Shown here piece after piece: positions 13,894 to 59,047 of a stretch of DNA of 64,000 nt. Position numbers and translations under genes: made by a program. Under the pieces are notes generated by a model. It was given only the letters and a program-made list of their open reading frames with translations. It was not told where the DNA came from and searched no databases. Location of the stretch: NCBI GenBank assembly GCA_963718745.1, contig OY970370.1, forward strand, positions 1,674,001 to 1,738,000. Reading direction: 5' to 3'. Numbering within the stretch: the stretch's first letter is position 1; the number at the start of each line of letters is the position of its first letter. The DNA comes from Fermentibacter sp963718745 [NCBI: Candidatus Fermentibacterota bacterium]. GTDB taxonomy: Bacteria; Fermentibacterota; Fermentibacteria; Fermentibacterales.

Positions 13894-14541
13894 TTGGCAA
13901 CCGTCTTCGTCGATCTCGACAGCACGCTGATAACGGGCTCCTCGGAGAAGTCCTTCTTCCTGCACCTCCTGCGCCGGGGAAGGCTGCGCCCGGGCGGGCT
14001 CTTCCGGTTCGCCCTCGGGTACCTGCTGCACCTGCCCCATACCATCGTCCACGGGCCGGGCTGGAACAGGCTGTACCTGAAGGGTCTCGATGCCGAGGCC
14101 GTGCGAGGTCTCGCAACGGGGTTCTCGCAGGGCTCGCTGGTCCCCAGGATCAGGCCGGCCGTCGCCGCCGAACTCGAAGGCCTCCGCACGGCGGGGGACT
14201 CTCTCATAATCCTGTCCGCCGCCCTGGAGTGGCTCGTCGAACCCCTGGGCAGGGCGGTCGGGGCGGACCGGGTGATCGGCAGCAGGCTGCAGGTCAGGGA
14301 CGGCCTGCTCACGGGCCGGCTGGACGGCGCGCGCCCGTTCGGAGAGGACAAGCTGGTGATCGTGAAGGAGACATGCGGACGTGAGGGCCTGGAACCGGAC
14401 GCGTGCACCGCATACGGCGACTCCTGGGCCGACCGTCACGTGCTGGGTTACTGCGGCACGGCCGTGGCCGTGAATCCGGGGCCGAAGCTTGCCGCGCTTG
14501 CGCGCGACCGCGGGTGGCGCATCATCGAGCCCCGGCGATGA
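13894..14541 (+). CDS. HAD-superfamily IB hydrolase (SerB-like phosphatase)
   Basis: 215 residues from a TTG start preceded by GGAGG. HAD motif I is DLDSTL (residues 6-11), motif II lies in IILSAALEW (Ser), and motif III/IV are EDK (around 152) and YGDSWADRHVL. The subfamily includes phosphoserine phosphatase and CicA-like enzymes of phospholipid or polysaccharide precursors. The stop overlaps the next ATG (ATGA), so it is coupled to the PP-loop ATPase. The substrate is not clear from the sequence. Confidence 0.83.
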   Translation: MATVFVDLDSTLITGSSEKSFFLHLLRRGRLRPGGLFRFALGYLLHLPHTIVHGPGWNRLYLKGLDAEAVRGLATGFSQGSLVPRIRPAVAAELEGLRTAGDSLIILSAALEWLVEPLGRAVGADRVIGSRLQVRDGLLTGRLDGARPFGEDKLVIVKETCGREGLEPDACTAYGDSWADRHVLGYCGTAVAVNPGPKLAALARDRGWRIIEPRR

Positions 14542-15494
14542 GCCGCAGGGCGAGGGGTCTGGGCGCATTCTCCGGCGGGCTCGACGGGCTGATCGCGGCG
14601 AAGCTCCTGGACGACATGGGCGTGGAGCTCCTGCTGGTGACGTTTTCGAGCCCCTACTTCAGCGCGGACCATGGGAGGGCCGGAGCCGCCCGGCTGGGCC
14701 TGCCCTGGCGCGAGGTCGACTTCACCGCAGAGATCATGGCGCTCCTGGCCGACCCTCCGAGCGGGTTCGGCTCCTGCCTCAACCCCTGCATCGACTGCCA
14801 TGCGGCCATGATCGCCAGGCTCGGCGGGATCATGCGCGAGGAGGGATTCGACTTCGTCTTCACCGGCGAGGTGCTCGGCCAGCGGCCGATGTCCCAGAGC
14901 TTTCCCTCGCTCAACCGCGTCGCGAAGCTCTCCGGCATCTCGGGAAGGCTCCTCAGGCCGCTCTCCGCGAAGCTGCTCGCTCCGACCATCCCGGAGGCCG
15001 AGGGGCTCGTCGACCGGGAGAGGCTCCTGGACCTGAGCGGCCGCGGCCGCAAGCCCCAGATGGCGCTGGCCGCACGATGGGGGCTCACCTTCCCGCCTCC
15101 CGCGGGGGGGTGCCTGCTCACGGACCAGGGCTACAGCAGGAGGCTGGGTGCGCTCCGGGACGCCGGTCTCCTGAGCCCCCTCAACTCGAGGCTGATACTG
15201 CACGGCCGGATGTTCCGGCTCGGACCGGGATCGTTCCTCGTGCTGGGCAGGGACGAGAAGGACAACCTCGCCCTGGAGACCCTCACGGGCGGAGCCGTGT
15301 TCACACCGCTGGACATCCCCGGCCCATCCGCCGTTCCCATCGGCGCTCCATCTCCTCCGGAAGCCGCCGCCCTGGTAGCGCTCTATTCACGCGGATCAGG
15401 TACCGGCAGCATGCGGATCGCAGCTCCGGACGGCACGGTCCTGTCGACCCTCCCCGCCGATGCCTCGATCGCCGAAAGTACAGTCATCCGCTGA
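14538..15494 (+). CDS. PP-loop ATPase, ThiI/MnmA-like (putative tRNA sulfurtransferase)
   Basis: 318 residues. The N-terminal PP-loop is SGGLDGLIAAKLL (the usual last Ser of SGGxDS is Gly). A Cys-rich block CLNPCIDCH and GEVLGQRPMSQ follow, as in the ThiI/MnmA group that adenylates and thiolates tRNA; the C-terminal third resembles the NFACT-R-like RNA-binding region seen in stand-alone homologues. The ATG lies inside the HAD gene stop (ATGA). Closest annotation in the literature is 'tRNA(5-methylaminomethyl-2-thiouridylate) methyltransferase-like', which is not a proven activity for this form. Confidence 0.7.
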   Translation: MSRRARGLGAFSGGLDGLIAAKLLDDMGVELLLVTFSSPYFSADHGRAGAARLGLPWREVDFTAEIMALLADPPSGFGSCLNPCIDCHAAMIARLGGIMREEGFDFVFTGEVLGQRPMSQSFPSLNRVAKLSGISGRLLRPLSAKLLAPTIPEAEGLVDRERLLDLSGRGRKPQMALAARWGLTFPPPAGGCLLTDQGYSRRLGALRDAGLLSPLNSRLILHGRMFRLGPGSFLVLGRDEKDNLALETLTGGAVFTPLDIPGPSAVPIGAPSPPEAAALVALYSRGSGTGSMRIAAPDGTVLSTLPADASIAESTVIR

Positions 15495-15502
15495 GCATTC
15501 CA

Positions 15503-15532
15503 TTGACCCTTGCTCCCCCGATTGTGTAAATT
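15503..15532 (+). promoter_or_regulatory. Promoter of the leader-peptide/ABC exporter operon
   Basis: TTGACC at 15503-15508 and TAAATT at 15527-15532 are 18 bp apart. The predicted start near 15540 leaves about 20 nt before the leader peptide's ATG, with an AGGGAGG SD at 15548-15554. The region is AT-rich relative to its surroundings and lies 8 nt after the PP-loop gene. Confidence 0.65.
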
Positions 15533-15561
15533 CACCGATTCTTACCCAGGGAGGCCGCAGT

Positions 15562-15588
15562 ATGATCAACAACGACACACACCTCTAG
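15562..15588 (+). CDS. Eight-residue leader peptide upstream of the ABC exporter
   Basis: ATG at 15562 to TAG at 15588 encodes MINNDTHL. A strong SD (AGGGAGG, 15548-15554) is spaced 7 nt from the ATG, and a good promoter lies just upstream, so the peptide is very likely translated. It ends 120 nt before the first ABC gene, with a stem-loop immediately after the stop codon. The layout copies ribosome-monitored leaders of drug-resistance genes, for example bmrB in front of the heterodimeric exporter bmrCD in Bacillus subtilis. The sequence has no runs of a single amino acid, so amino-acid starvation is a less likely signal than ribosome-targeting compounds; both points are inference. Confidence 0.6.
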   Translation: MINNDTHL

Positions 15589-15598
15589 CGGGGGCTCC

Positions 15599-15632
15599 TC
15601 AGCGCAGCTTCATCTCACGGGCTGACCGCTGA
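15599..15632 (+). promoter_or_regulatory. Stem-loop after the leader peptide (attenuator candidate)
   Basis: TCAGCGCAGC at 15599-15608 pairs with GCTG (15621-15624) and CGCTGA (15627-15632), with a two-base AC bulge and a 12-nt loop: ten base pairs in all. It begins 11 nt after the leader stop codon, so a ribosome stalled on the leader would cover or alter it. No U-run follows, so it may act on translation, pausing or RNA stability and not as a classical terminator. Confidence 0.45.
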
Positions 15633-15708
15633 AGGCAGCCGCACCGAGTCGAATCGGATCCATAATCCAGAACAAGGTTCAACTCAGGCCCCGACGGGAT
15701 AGGCTGCT

Positions 15709-17505
15709 ATGTATTTCGACGATTTCATGGATGACGACGACCATCCCCAGCGCAGGTTCCCCCTGCGGGTACTGTGGAGGGGTCTCAAGCCGATAGCGAG
15801 TTCGCACGCGTGGTCCTTCGCGGCGGCCGCCGGCCTGCTGATGCTCGGTGTCGCAGGCGAGCTGTGCGGTCCCCTGATCCTCCGGCGGATCATCGACGTG
15901 GCCATACCCGCCCGCTCAACCGGGCAGATAGCCGCGCTCGCCGGGCTCTACGCGGTCCTGTTCATCGCAACGATGTCCGTGTTCTACCTCCAGGTGATGG
16001 TCACCGCGAGGCTGGGCCTCTACATCGTGCGCGACCTCAAGGGCAGGGTCTTCGAGCACATGCTCTCCCTCTCGCAGGCGTTCTTCGACTCCTTCCCGTC
16101 CGGCAAGCTGATGGCCAGGGTCGAGAGCGACAGCGAGCGCGTCAGGATGCTGTTCAGCGAGACATCGATGGCCATCCTGCGAAGCCTCACGCTCATGGCC
16201 GGGACGATAGGGATAATGGCCGCCACCAACCTGCGCATCACGGGCTTCGTGATGATCCTGGTGCTGCCGGTGGCCCTGACGACGATCCCGGTGCTCAGGC
16301 TGATGAGGAAGCTGTGGGCGCAGGTGCGGGCATCGTACGCCCGTATCTCCGGCCTGGTGGCGGAGTATGTCCGCTCGGTTCCCGTGCTCCAGGTGTTCAA
16401 TGCCACCGAGGTCGCGGCCGGCAAGCTCTCCCGCGAGGGCAGGCGCTTCCTGGGCCTCGAGGTGAAGGCCTCCCTCTGGGAGTACGGTTTCTGGAGCTTC
16501 CTGGGCTCGTGCGAGGTGGCCGCCGTTGCGGTGATCCTCACCGCGGGCAGGGGCGGGGTGCTCGCCGGCACCATCACGATAGGCTCCGTGGTGCTCTTCA
16601 TCGAGTACACGCGCAGGCTCTTCATGCCCATCGTGATGTTCTCGGAGACCCTGAACCAGGTCCAGAGGGCGCTCGCCTCGGCCGACAGGATCAACTCGAT
16701 CCTGTCCACCGAGACCCAGACGCCGGACGGGGACCTCGGAGAGGAGGACTTCCCCGAGGACTGGGACGAGATCCGCTTCGAGGACGTCTGGTTCAGCTAC
16801 GGCAGGGAGGAGTGGGCGCTGAAGGGCGTGACGCTCTCCATACCCAGGCGCGCCGTGGTCGCGCTGGTGGGCGCCTCGGGCGGCGGGAAGAGCACGATTG
16901 TGAGCCTCCTGATGCGCTTCTACGAGCCCACCCGCGGGTGCATCACGATAGGCGGGATGGACATAAGGCGCTTCAAGCTGGACACCTGGCGCAGGAGGCT
17001 CGGCCTCGTGCTGCAGAATGTCAGCCTGTTCTCCGGCACGTTCTCGGAGAACCTGACCGTCTTCGACCCCACGGTGACCCCCGGCGCGCAACTGGAAGCT
17101 CTGCGTACGATCGAGGCCGAGGACCTGCTGGACAGGTTCCCGGGCGGGCTCGCAGGCGAGATTTCCGAGGGCGGGCAGAACCTCTCCATGGGCGAGAGGC
17201 AGCTCATCAACTTCGCCCGGGCGGTGCTGCACAGGCCGGAGATCCTGGTCCTGGACGAGGCCACCTCGTCCGTCGACCCGGGCACCGAGAAGCGCATCCA
17301 GAGGGCGATGGACATGGTTTTCGAGGGACGGACCGCGCTCGTCGTCGCTCACCGGCTGACGACCGTAAGGAACGCGGACCGGATCTACGTCATACAGGCG
17401 GGGCAGGTCGTAGAGACCGGGACCCATCTGGAACTGATAGAATGCGGTGGCGTCTATGCCGGGCTCTGCAGGCTGCAGCTCGTGCCGGAGGCCGTAAATG
17501 TTTAA
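15709..17505 (+). CDS. ABC exporter half-transporter, subunit with catalytic Walker B Glu
   Basis: 598 residues: six membrane helices (about 25-320) and a nucleotide-binding domain (about 355-598). Walker A is GASGGGKST, Walker B ends LVLDEATS with the catalytic Glu, and the H-loop is VAHRLTT. The signature is NLSMGERQ, a degenerate form of LSGGQ. This pattern, together with the complementary changes in the next gene, marks a heterodimeric type IV exporter of the BmrCD/LmrCD/TM287-288 kind, mostly drug or lipid exporters. It overlaps the partner gene by 8 nt. Expression is probably governed by the leader peptide 120 nt upstream. Confidence 0.9.
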   Translation: MYFDDFMDDDDHPQRRFPLRVLWRGLKPIASSHAWSFAAAAGLLMLGVAGELCGPLILRRIIDVAIPARSTGQIAALAGLYAVLFIATMSVFYLQVMVTARLGLYIVRDLKGRVFEHMLSLSQAFFDSFPSGKLMARVESDSERVRMLFSETSMAILRSLTLMAGTIGIMAATNLRITGFVMILVLPVALTTIPVLRLMRKLWAQVRASYARISGLVAEYVRSVPVLQVFNATEVAAGKLSREGRRFLGLEVKASLWEYGFWSFLGSCEVAAVAVILTAGRGGVLAGTITIGSVVLFIEYTRRLFMPIVMFSETLNQVQRALASADRINSILSTETQTPDGDLGEEDFPEDWDEIRFEDVWFSYGREEWALKGVTLSIPRRAVVALVGASGGGKSTIVSLLMRFYEPTRGCITIGGMDIRRFKLDTWRRRLGLVLQNVSLFSGTFSENLTVFDPTVTPGAQLEALRTIEAEDLLDRFPGGLAGEISEGGQNLSMGERQLINFARAVLHRPEILVLDEATSSVDPGTEKRIQRAMDMVFEGRTALVVAHRLTTVRNADRIYVIQAGQVVETGTHLELIECGGVYAGLCRLQLVPEAVNV

Positions 17506-19219
17506 GTACTTCAAATGGATCTTCAGGTACTACAGGACGCACAAGGCGCACACCGTGCTCCTCGCCCTGCTGACCTTCATATCGGGCACCGTCGCGCTGG
17601 CCTTCCCGCTGGTGTTCCGCTACCTGCTGGACAACGTGCAGGAAGTGCTGGCCCCGGAGAACTCGGGGATGTTCGTGAAGCTGCTGCTGGCGCTGGCCGG
17701 CGTGGGTCTCGCCCGGATGGTGGCGGGGTTCTACCCCGGGGCGAGGGCCTGGCTGAACAGCAAGATCGGCATGGAGGTCAGGGACGACGCGTTCGGCGAG
17801 ATACTGAAGAAGGACTACAGGTTCTTCTCGAAGTTCGGCCCCGGCGACCTCTCGACGCGTCTGACCGACGACATAGTCGAGTACCCCCGGATCGCCTGGT
17901 TCAGCTGCTCGGGCATCTTCCGGGCCGTGGAGTCGTCTACGAGGCTTCTCTTCTGCCTGAGCGTGATGTTCTTCATGAGCGTCGAACTGACGCTGCTCGC
18001 GCTCGCGCCCCTTCCGATAATGCTGTGGATCTTCTACAGGACGGAGCGGAAGCTCGGGAAGCGGGTGGAGGAAAGCCGGAAGGCGACCAGCCGCACCAGC
18101 GACCTCCTGGACAGCACCTTCGCCGGGATAGCCATCATCAAGGCGTATCGCGCGGAGAAGGGGCAGTCCGGAAGGCTCCGCGGGCTCCTGGACACCAGGC
18201 TCTCCATCGACCTGTCGATAACGAAGCTCGTCATGGCGATCGAGTCGCTGTACAGCATCCTCGGCGAGGTGGGGAAGGTCACGGTGCTCTTCCTCGGCGG
18301 GCTGTTCGTGATCCAGGACAAGATCACGATAGGCGACCTCTACGCCTTCTACGTGTACCTGGACATGCTGCTCGCGCCCATGCTCGACATCCCCAACCTC
18401 TTCGTCACGTCGAAGCAGGCCTTCGCCTCGATCGACAGGGTGCGCGAGGTGATGGACTTCCCGCCGGCGCCCGTGAAGAGCGGTCTGCGGAAGCTCAGCC
18501 CCGTCAGCTCGGTGGAGTTCAGGAACGCGGGCTTCCGCTACCCCGGCTGCGATACCGGCGTCATCGGCCTGAAGGGCCGGTTCGAGGGCCCGCTGACGGT
18601 GGCCGTCGTGGGAGAGGTGGGCAGCGGCAAGTCCACGCTCGTGAAGATGCTCTCGGGGCAGCTCCCCTGCACCGAGGGGGAGATACTGGTCAACGACATC
18701 CCGCTGGGCGAGATCGATCCTTCGGACATGGCGCTGGAGATGGGATACGTACCGCAGGAGTCCTCGCTCTTCTCCGACAGCGTCGGGGAGAACGTGAAGC
18801 TGGGCAGGGAGATGGACGACGAGTCCGTCCGGAGGGCGCTGACCCTGGCCGACCTCCCCGCCTCCGATCTGCCCGAGGGGCTGGATACGAAGCTTGGGCA
18901 GGGCGGCACCGGCGTCAGCGGCGGGCAGAAGCAGCGCGTCGCCATCGCAAGGTCGCTCGCGGGCGATCCGAGCATCTGCCTGTTCGACGACTGCACGGCG
19001 GCGCTGGACGCCGACCTGGAGCAGAAGTTCTGGGAGGGCCTGCGTGCCGAGGGCGGCAGGAGGCTCGTATTCGTGGTCACCCATCGAGAGGCGACCGTCA
19101 GGCAGAGCGACCGCGTGATCTTCCTGCACCGCGGGATACTCCATGCGATCGGCACGCACGACGAGCTGCTCCGCTGCAACGAGGTCTACCGCCTCGTGCT
19201 GGCGACGGAGATGAGCTGA
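17498..19219 (+). CDS. ABC exporter half-transporter, degenerate-site subunit
   Basis: 573 residues with the same six-helix plus NBD layout. Walker A is GEVGSGKST and the signature is intact (GVSGGQKQR), but the Walker B end reads LFDDCTAALD, with Asp replacing the catalytic Glu; the H-loop His is kept (VVTHREA). Its Walker A/B site therefore pairs with the poor signature of the first subunit to form the degenerate ATP site, while its good signature completes the active site of the partner. The ATG (SD GGAGG) overlaps the end of the partner gene. Confidence 0.9.
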   Translation: MFKYFKWIFRYYRTHKAHTVLLALLTFISGTVALAFPLVFRYLLDNVQEVLAPENSGMFVKLLLALAGVGLARMVAGFYPGARAWLNSKIGMEVRDDAFGEILKKDYRFFSKFGPGDLSTRLTDDIVEYPRIAWFSCSGIFRAVESSTRLLFCLSVMFFMSVELTLLALAPLPIMLWIFYRTERKLGKRVEESRKATSRTSDLLDSTFAGIAIIKAYRAEKGQSGRLRGLLDTRLSIDLSITKLVMAIESLYSILGEVGKVTVLFLGGLFVIQDKITIGDLYAFYVYLDMLLAPMLDIPNLFVTSKQAFASIDRVREVMDFPPAPVKSGLRKLSPVSSVEFRNAGFRYPGCDTGVIGLKGRFEGPLTVAVVGEVGSGKSTLVKMLSGQLPCTEGEILVNDIPLGEIDPSDMALEMGYVPQESSLFSDSVGENVKLGREMDDESVRRALTLADLPASDLPEGLDTKLGQGGTGVSGGQKQRVAIARSLAGDPSICLFDDCTAALDADLEQKFWEGLRAEGGRRLVFVVTHREATVRQSDRVIFLHRGILHAIGTHDELLRCNEVYRLVLATEMS

Positions 19220-24279: not shown

Positions 24280-24305
24280 CGGAGGACCTGCATCAAGACT
24301 GCAGG

Positions 24306-24390
24306 CAGCGGGGTTCCTTCCGCCGATATTACTCGGATCAAGTTCCAGGGGTTCTGTCTCAGGCCGCACCGGGCCGCCCCCACCCGCGGG
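24306..24390 (-). promoter_or_regulatory. TPP riboswitch (THI element) upstream of thiM-thiE
   Basis: Read on the minus strand, the conserved blocks of the thi-box appear in order: GGGTGGGGGC, CTGAGA, ACCCCTGGAACTTGATC and CGAGTAATATCGGCGGAAGGA. These match the pyrimidine- and pyrophosphate-sensing arms of the TPP aptamer. It sits about 50 nt upstream of the thiM GTG. A TATATT at 24399-24394 is a candidate -10 just before the aptamer. Binding of TPP would lower thiM-thiE expression, probably by hiding the SD. Confidence 0.9.
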
Positions 24391-24542
24391 GGGAATATAC
24401 ATGCGGGCGGGCATCCGGCATCCGGTGGGCGCCTTGGAACGGGGAGCCCATGAAGGTAGATTGCCACAGTCGGAGGGCTGCGGGATGCCCGTGACCGGGA
24501 AACGGCGCCGAAGATGCGAATTGACGTATATGAATGCCAGAT

Positions 24543-58962: not shown

Positions 58963-58976
58963 CGTCGAGATAAATC

Positions 58977-59028
58977 CGTGGAGTGATTTGGGGCGTATTG
59001 CAACCACGTTAAAAAAAGTGCTAAAAGG
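58977..59028 (+). promoter_or_regulatory. SAM-II riboswitch upstream of metK
   Basis: CGTGG (58977-58981) pairs with CCACG (59004-59008) as stem P1. The conserved SAM-II pieces are in order: GTGATTTG (58983-58990), TATTGCAACCACGTTAAA around 58996-59013, and AGTGCTAAAAGG (59018-59028). These match the published SAM-II consensus (GATTTG ... TTGCA-GCCACG-TTAAA ... GCTAAA). The aptamer is a pseudoknot that binds S-adenosylmethionine. It lies 60 nt before metK, whose product makes SAM, so feedback control is the obvious role. SAM-II is known mostly from Alphaproteobacteria and Bacteroidetes. Confidence 0.88.
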
Positions 59029-59047
59029 CCGTTGATCACGCCTGTGA

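What the first reader, a model, noticed from the sequence alone, without database searches (positions are those of the whole stretch)
15503..17505. Leader peptide and hairpin in front of a heterodimeric ABC exporter
A promoter (15503-15532), a well-placed SD, an 8-codon ORF (MINNDTHL, 15562-15588) and a 10-bp bulged hairpin (15599-15632) precede a heterodimeric exporter with one degenerate ATP site. This is the same architecture as bmrB-bmrCD in Bacillus subtilis, where ribosome stalling on a leader peptide turns on the drug exporter. Here it occurs in an apparently unrelated, Gram-negative-type organism. The peptide has no codon run, so amino-acid attenuation is unlikely.
Basis: partly seen in the sequence, partly recalled or inferred. 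Interest (0 to 1): 0.7.

Follow-up and report, generated by a model that had tools for sequence, protein, structure and literature searches.

The report
Translated leader switch before ABC exporter
In an uncultured bacterial phylum, nearly every copy examined of one two-part membrane exporter is preceded by a tiny 7-10 codon gene that looks like a switch: where the ribosome sits on it should decide whether the exporter is made.

Summary
The window belongs near Candidatus Fermentibacter. In the window and 38 of 39 related upstream regions, an ATG mini-ORF of 7-10 codons with a Shine-Dalgarno-like site (SD) precedes the same heterodimeric ABC exporter. Other genes of the same loci with room for it show one in 7 of 87.

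The peptide is under purifying selection in three clades (pN/pS 0.27-0.44) and unconstrained in the window's clade (1.11); there ORF length, UAG stop and downstream hairpin are kept.

The hairpin is 18 bp (15593-15640). Its lower stem shares bases with a helix over the exporter's ribosome-binding site (15634-15640 with 15702-15708). In the model a ribosome on leader codons 1-4 leaves that site open; one on codons 7-8 closes it. Phylum-wide, 'early open, late closed' holds in 37 of 39 sequences (shuffles 16-24 of 39), with different RNA folds per clade.

The bmrB analogy is half right: no terminator was found, so translational attenuation closest to E. coli toiL is likelier. The trigger is unknown, there is no wet-lab evidence, and the window's own effect depends on the footprint assumed.

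The parts
15503..15532 (+). sigma-70-type promoter TTGACC-18-TAAATT
   Evidence: TTGAC plus a -10-like hexamer (at least 3 of 6) in the 80 nt before the leader start in 39 of 39 sequences, against 0 of 87 in the 80 nt before other genes
15549..15554 (+). leader Shine-Dalgarno GGGAGG
   Evidence: read directly; an SD-like match of 4 nt or more before each of the 39 leaders
15562..15588 (+). leader ORF MINNDTHL*, 8 codons, UAG stop
   Evidence: a mini-ORF of 7-10 codons at this place in the window and 38 of 39 relatives' upstream regions
15593..15640 (+). extended hairpin (anti-sequestor), 18 bp, 15593-15610 with 15619-15640; starts 5 nt after the stop codon
   Evidence: near-identical in four Fermentibacter-type sequences, re-formed with other bases in L028
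15634..15640 (+). GGCAGCC, shared between the hairpin's 3' strand and the RBS-sequestering helix
   Evidence: pairs with 15702-15708
15646..15653 (+). 5' strand of a conserved side helix, GAGTCGAA with 15678-15685 TTCAACTC (one mismatch)
   Evidence: predicted in the window and kept in the four F1 sequences
15701..15708 (+). ribosome-binding region of the exporter (AGG core) overlapped by the sequestering strand GGCTGCT (15702-15708)
15709..17505 (+). ABC exporter subunit 1 (598 aa), non-canonical signature LSMGE
17498..19219 (+). ABC exporter subunit 2 (573 aa), Asp in place of the Walker-B Glu; start overlaps the stop of subunit 1

Best explanation
It is a translational attenuator. The promoter makes an mRNA that should begin some 20-30 nt before an 8-codon ORF with a good SD. 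After the ORF's stop codon the RNA can form either of two mutually exclusive structures. One is the long hairpin 15593-15640, which holds GGCAGCC (15634-15640). The other is a helix of that GGCAGCC with GGCTGCT (15702-15708), which covers the ribosome-binding site of the exporter. A ribosome that runs to the end of the leader covers GGCU (15593-15596), melts the base of the hairpin and so lets GGCAGCC close the exporter's ribosome-binding site: exporter low. A ribosome held on the first codons leaves the hairpin intact and the site open: exporter high. Other clades reach the same logic differently, by pairing the leader's own initiation region with the exporter's start region. Shown by comparison: the ORF and promoter are conserved and, in one clade, the helices are. 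Shown only in silico: the ribosome-position effect. Inferred: that cells use it to raise the exporter when initiation or early elongation stalls, for example under translation-blocking compounds.
For: Conserved ORF: 39 of 40 upstream regions against 2.83 of 40 in shuffles; 38 of 40 against 9 of 134 other genes of any spacing; 16 of 17 exporter rows against 7 of 87 other genes with at least 120 nt of room. Paralogous ABC pairs: one weak mini-ORF (SD 4 nt, at -75) among 18 motif-bearing, partly overlapping ORFs in 8 fetched loci. Promoter in 39 of 39, 0 of 87 controls. Peptide selection: pN/pS 0.27, 0.36, 0.44 in A1 (11 leaders), A2 (5) and C (10 of 12). Window switch: P(sequestor) 0.10, 0.07, 0.02, 0.01 with the ribosome on codons 1-4, then 0.25, 0.51, 0.97, 0.98 on codons 5-8. 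L021 and L027 run the same way, turning near codon 4; L022 turns only at codons 7-8. With a ribosome on the last codon the exporter site closes by 2.7-3.9 kcal/mol in 6 of 6 Fermentibacter-side sequences, equalled by 0-2 of 40 shuffles each. Phylum: late minus early opening energy has mean 3.07 kcal/mol and is positive in 37 of 39; 12 shuffle sets gave means -0.30 to 0.55 and 16-24 positives. By group 11 of 12 are positive. Clade C: 93.2% of cells paired, 7 pairs with changes on both sides, no shuffle of 500 equal on four of five measures, slid versions 36-57% paired.
Against: All of the switching is secondary-structure calculation with blocked footprints. With a short late footprint (-12/+10) the window's own effect falls to 0.1-0.2 kcal/mol; with the RBS taken as -12..0, positives fall to 27-32 of 39; clade C depends on an initiation-type footprint. 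The ribosome-free state is not consistent inside the genus: P(sequestor) 0.09 in the window but 0.62 and 0.83 in L021 and L027, and 0.00 in L022. Opening by a ribosome at the leader start is small in F1 (1.3 kcal/mol; 9, 6, 4 and 0 of 25 shuffles reach it) and negative in F3 (-2.0), E2 (-1.2) and A1b (-0.1). The resting exporter RBS is no more buried than that of other genes (F mean 9.9 against 11.0; A 8.4 and C 8.7 against 8.5). Single RBS-partner helices are mostly not unusual against shuffles (window p 0.22, F1 median 0.31, Fisher over groups 0.009), and the leader-to-RBS cross-pairing test is p 0.015, carried by a few groups. L029 and L055 go the wrong way. In one search one measure is no better than shuffles (further pair types, 315 of 500) and the structure came from the same alignment. 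Rows are related, so counts are not independent.
Confidence: 0.64

Rival explanations
1. Ribosome-mediated transcription attenuation as in bmrB-bmrCD: the leader ribosome decides between terminator and antiterminator.
For: Same kind of downstream operon and an upstream leader. In clade C a U-run follows the strand complementary to the leader SD.
Against: No terminator-like site in 15300-15900 of the window (the scan was not run on the relatives). The conserved outer pairs in clade C and the predicted window pairs end at the exporter's ribosome-binding site, not at a U-tract.
Confidence: 0.1
2. Rho-coupled version: the leader controls exporter translation, and an untranslated exporter message is then cut short by Rho, as proposed for toiL-topAI.
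For: Same RBS-occlusion geometry as toiL (PMC12121999 abstract and sections 8, 13).
Against: Nothing here tests Rho; it would add to the best explanation rather than replace it.
Confidence: 0.25
3. The ORF is a passive 5' element that only loads ribosomes and protects the message; the RNA structures have no switching role.
For: Peptide unconstrained in the window's clade; resting RBS accessibility ordinary; single helices unremarkable.
Against: Peptide conserved in clades A and C; position-dependent opening beyond shuffles; covarying helices in clade C.
Confidence: 0.2
4. Ligand riboswitch or protein-binding hairpin; the ORF is incidental.
For: Hairpin and loop nearly invariant in four Fermentibacter-type sequences.
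Against: No Rfam match at E up to 1 in the window stretch or in ten relatives' loci at gathering score. By DNA search the leader sequence matches well in only 3 of 42 genomes (next best E 0.019), while the ORF is kept across the phylum.
Confidence: 0.06

Closest known systems
toiL-topAI-yjhQ regulatory uORF (Escherichia coli, PMC12121999; abstract and sections 8 and 13 read)
   Same: uORF in a Gram-negative; its sequence pairs with the downstream ribosome-binding site; start-codon stalls are proposed to open it
   Different: Here the target is an ABC exporter; the uORF is 7-10 codons and found across a phylum; the fold differs between clades; in Fermentibacter the sequestering strand lies after the stop codon; inducers unknown; Rho not examined
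bmrB-bmrCD (Bacillus subtilis, PMC4191407; abstract and passages read)
   Same: Leader ORF ahead of a heterodimeric ABC exporter (one degenerate ATP site of BmrCD is recalled)
   Different: bmrB is a 162-nt ORF with an internal intrinsic terminator; here 8 codons, no terminator found, predicted control of translation
erm/cat/msrD-type drug-induced leader peptides (PMC10314930 and PMC8298421, search listings and starts of abstracts only; the rest recalled)
   Same: Very short leader; most clade A leaders carry the Lys/Arg-X-Lys/Arg pattern at which ketolides predominantly stall ribosomes
   Different: Peptide varies freely in the window's clade, so no fixed arrest peptide; the gene controlled is an exporter found in 39 of 42 genomes of the phylum
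patAB attenuator (Streptococcus pneumoniae, PMC4319486; title and start of abstract in a search listing only)
   Same: Attenuator ahead of the PatAB ABC transporter genes
   Different: Described in the title as a transcriptional attenuator; the details were not read

Membership tests
bmrB-type ribosome-mediated transcription attenuator | leader ORF ahead of a heterodimeric ABC exporter | tested here: met
bmrB-type ribosome-mediated transcription attenuator | intrinsic terminator overlapping the leader | tested here: not met
   none found in window 15300-15900; bmrB terminator in PMC4191407
bmrB-type ribosome-mediated transcription attenuator | induction by ribosome-targeting antibiotics | not testable with these tools
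   needs expression data
toiL/erm-type translation attenuator | conserved short uORF with its own ribosome-binding site | tested here: met
   39 of 40 upstream regions; purifying selection in three clades, none in the window's clade
toiL/erm-type translation attenuator | RNA structure that occludes the downstream ribosome-binding site | tested here: inconclusive
   predicted for F, A and C clades with covariation support in clade C only; mean occlusion no higher than in other genes and single helices mostly not beyond shuffles
toiL/erm-type translation attenuator | ribosome position on the uORF changes that occlusion | tested here: met
   in silico only: 37 of 39; sensitive to footprint, 27-38 of 39 over 15 settings
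toiL/erm-type translation attenuator | drug- or stress-dependent stalling on the uORF | not testable with these tools
   needs ribosome profiling or toeprinting
Amino-acid attenuator (trp type) | run of regulatory codons kept among relatives | tested here: not met
   no shared run among 39 leaders; the longest single cases are three Ala codons in L028 and two Asn codons in the window
Heterodimeric ABC exporter with one degenerate site (TM287/288, BmrCD type) | two adjacent half-transporters, one catalytic site degenerate | tested here: met
   LSMG or ISMG signature in 41 of 42 rows (1 not covered; some genomes appear twice); Asp-Asp Walker B in 10 of 10 rows that cover it, 29 of 39 rows do not cover it fully; PDB sequence relatives include TM0288, YheH and YheI
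Rfam riboswitch | match to a described family | tested here: not met
   no match in the leader or in ten relatives' loci

The most novel reading that the evidence does not exclude
A phylum-wide uORF switch in which the peptide and the RNA fold have both been replaced several times while one rule was kept: ribosome at the start of the leader opens the exporter's ribosome-binding site, ribosome at its end does not. In the window's genus the peptide sequence is free, so the sensor would be ribosome progress itself rather than an arrest peptide: a general gauge of slow or blocked early translation driving an exporter found in nearly every genome held of the phylum.
Probability: 0.42. Interest if true: 0.75.

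Novelty: new variant of a known kind. Interest (0 to 1): 0.62.

Why it matters
If true, translation-sensing control of an ABC exporter is an old and standing feature of an uncultured phylum rather than an acquired resistance trick. The set gives a natural experiment: 39 leaders with one apparent logic, several RNA folds and peptides that range from conserved to free. That makes it possible to ask what such a sensor must keep, and the predictions (which pairs, which codon) can be tested with simple reporters.

Tried and rejected
Whole-genome searches of the window's own assembly: not held. Copies of the element elsewhere: the CGTTCAA-SD-ATG pattern hit 15 of 42 genomes, once each; 14 of the 15 are this leader by sequence and place, and G012:C76 was not followed up. 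The window's leader DNA matched only G001, G002 and G007 well; the next best E was 0.019. Riboswitch: no Rfam match. Amino-acid attenuation: no shared codon run. Simple complementarity of the exporter RBS to the leader: weak by itself, so not used as main evidence. Greater resting burial of the RBS: not found.

Rows left out: G014 (no upstream DNA), G015, G018, G031 (no match at E 1e-110), L055 and L057 from the clade C pN/pS because of length, and L035 from the 39-leader analyses because an insertion splits its leader. L020 and L041 come from the same binned genome. For the pair count I dropped one 3-bp helix inside the leader ORF from the RNAalifold structure (24 pairs to 21). The first control count (23 of 104) still contained the exporter's own rows; one search separates them (17 exporter rows, 87 others).

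Papers: a search for Fermentibacteria together with ABC transporter gave none. No paper describing this leader was seen in those listings, which cover open-licence PMC only and show a limited number of rows each.

Full report
What was checked. The hairpin is longer than stated: 15593-15610 pairs with 15619-15640, 18 bp with three small bulges. The leader stretch 15530-15725 does not fold better than shuffles (z -0.28), so folding energy alone is no argument.

Where it comes from. No assembly is held for the window. The nearest exporter subunits are in Candidatus Fermentibacteria bins, 90% (L001) and 87% (L002, Ca. Fermentibacter daniensis). All 20 loci found bear Fermentibacteria, Fermentibacteraceae, Fermentibacter or Aegiribacteria titles. 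In the phylum of L002's genome, 39 of 42 genomes held encode the subunit at E 1e-110 or better.

The leader is real. I compared the window with 39 upstream regions: 38 genomes plus a second fragment, L020, from one of the same bins. An ATG mini-ORF with an SD-like site is found in the window and 38 of the 39. The exception, L035, has its leader split by an insertion. Lengths are 7 codons in 8, 8 in 17, 9 in 13 and 10 in 1; stops are UAA in 24, UAG in 13 and UGA in 2 (counted). Shuffled regions give a mean of 2.83 of 40 (SD at least 4 nt) or 0.10 of 40 (at least 6 nt) against 39 and 20 observed. Among other ORFs of 200 aa or more in the window and L001-L020, whatever their spacing, 9 of 134 and 0 of 134 have one in the 190 nt upstream, against 38 and 19 of 40 exporter regions. 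With at least 120 nt of room the figures are 7 of 87 and 0 of 87 for other genes, and 16 of 17 and 2 of 17 for the exporter rows. Upstream of paralogous ABC pairs fetched from the same genomes there is one weak case among 18 motif-bearing, partly overlapping ORFs in 8 loci. TTGAC with a -10-like hexamer 26-38 nt before the leader start is found in 39 of 39 and in 0 of 87 control regions by the same rule.

The peptide. In the Aegiribacteria-type clades and in clade C it is conserved with many silent changes (MTKIKRLFQ; MIKxRIQ; mostly MIxRxSVx; pN/pS 0.27, 0.36, 0.44). In the window's clade it is free (MINNDTHL, MSNISVRL twice, MFIYLMHS; pN/pS 1.11, 4 sequences), although the flanking SD, UAG and hairpin hardly change. 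So translation of a short ORF, not one peptide, is the shared feature.

How it could work in the window. The base of the hairpin pairs GGCU-CCU (15593-15599) with AGG-C-AGCC (15633-15640). The same GGCAGCC can pair with GGCTGCT (15702-15708), which carries the exporter's SD core and spacer. In the calculated ensemble a ribosome with its P-site on codons 1 to 8 gives the closing helix probabilities 0.10, 0.07, 0.02, 0.01, 0.25, 0.51, 0.97, 0.98. L021 and L027 run the same way but turn near codon 4. L022 closes only at codons 7-8 (0.43, 0.94) and mostly uses other pairings before that. Without a ribosome the helix is rare in the window (0.09) and L022 (0.00) but common in L021 (0.62) and L027 (0.83), so the resting state is not settled. 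A ribosome on the last codon closes the exporter site by 2.7-3.9 kcal/mol in 6 of 6 sequences of this side of the tree, equalled by 0-2 of 40 shuffles each. In L028 and L026 the inner hairpin strand is instead complementary to the exporter site over 10 bp, with other bases (GCCUGAUCCU/AGGAUCAGGU and GGCCUGACCU/AGGUCGGGCU; p 0.010 and 0.100 against shuffles).

Other clades. In clade C, CCGUUCAA just before the leader's SD pairs with UUGAACGG at the exporter's SD, and the leader's SD pairs with ACCUUC downstream. RNAalifold finds both, plus two covarying hairpins. That structure, less one 3-bp helix inside the ORF, is paired in 93.2% of cells, has 7 pairs with changes on both sides, and no shuffle of 500 equals it on four of five measures; on the fifth 315 do. 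The outer helix itself hardly varies, so its support is conservation and not covariation. In clade A1 the leader's start region faces the exporter's start region. Blocking the leader start opens the exporter site by 3.6 (A1), 4.9 (A2), 3.6 (A3), 4.2 (A1c), 2.6 (C), 1.5 (D), 1.4 (F2), 1.3 (F1) and 0.9 (E1) kcal/mol against 0-0.4 in shuffles; in F3, E2 and A1b it does not (-2.0, -1.2, -0.1).

One rule, several folds. The difference in opening energy between a ribosome at the end and one at the start of the leader is positive in 37 of 39 sequences, mean 3.07 kcal/mol. Twelve shuffle sets gave 16-24 positives and means of -0.30 to 0.55. By group, 11 of 12 are positive; L029 and L055 are the exceptions. 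Over 15 choices of footprint and RBS extent, positives range from 27 to 38 of 39. The window's own value ranges from 0.1 to 3.3 kcal/mol and is lost with the shortest late footprint.

Results against. The exporter site at rest is not more buried than those of other genes. Most single complementarities are unremarkable (window p 0.22; Fisher over groups 0.009). The leader-to-RBS cross-pairing test is only p 0.015. The sequences are related, so counts are not independent. Pseudoknots and co-transcriptional folding were not modelled.

What it is compared with. bmrB-bmrCD shares the downstream operon type but is a 162-nt ORF with an intrinsic terminator (PMC4191407, abstract and passages); no terminator-like site was found here. 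toiL in E. coli is the closest in working: sequence within it pairs with the downstream RBS, tetracycline-stalled initiating ribosomes are proposed to open it, and at least five drug classes relieve repression (PMC12121999, abstract and sections 8, 13). The Lys/Arg-X-Lys/Arg pattern in clade A leaders (10 of 11 in the A1 groups, 5 of 5 in A2, by reading) is the motif at which ketolides predominantly stall (PMC8298421, start of abstract). This is a lead only, and it is absent from the four leaders of the window's clade.

Judgement. That the leader is translated: about 0.93. That it controls the exporter in cis: about 0.75. That early position means open and late means closed: about 0.6. That the natural trigger is a translation-blocking compound: about 0.35. 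It is filed as a new variant of the regulatory-uORF kind.

Noticed in passing
L035 (Ca. Aegiribacteria), leader region upstream of the exporter: The leader ORF is split by an insertion of roughly 160-170 nt with inverted termini TAGGAGTGTGTCTGA.. / ..TCGGACGCGCTCCTA and TA at both ends, like a small TA-inserting element; the rest of the leader is still recognisable.
   Followed up: partly
window 58968-59044 (+): SAM_alpha riboswitch (RF00521), a family described as alphaproteobacterial, in a window from the Fermentibacteria.
   Followed up: no
window 24298-24391 (-): TPP riboswitch (RF00059) on the minus strand, upstream of ORFs that look like thiamine genes by eye.
   Followed up: no
window 14541-15494 (+): The gene just upstream of the leader has only marginal Pfam matches (NFACT-R_2, DUF7411; both below the curated cut-off); some Aegiribacteria loci appear to end a similar gene at the same place (by eye).
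   Followed up: no
clade A leaders (L020, L024, L030-L034, L036-L042, L058): Leader peptides keep Lys/Arg-X-Lys/Arg at positions 3-5, with a variable middle residue in the 7-codon form (KGR, KNR, KRR); this is the pattern known for ketolide stalling. L025 lacks it.
   Followed up: partly
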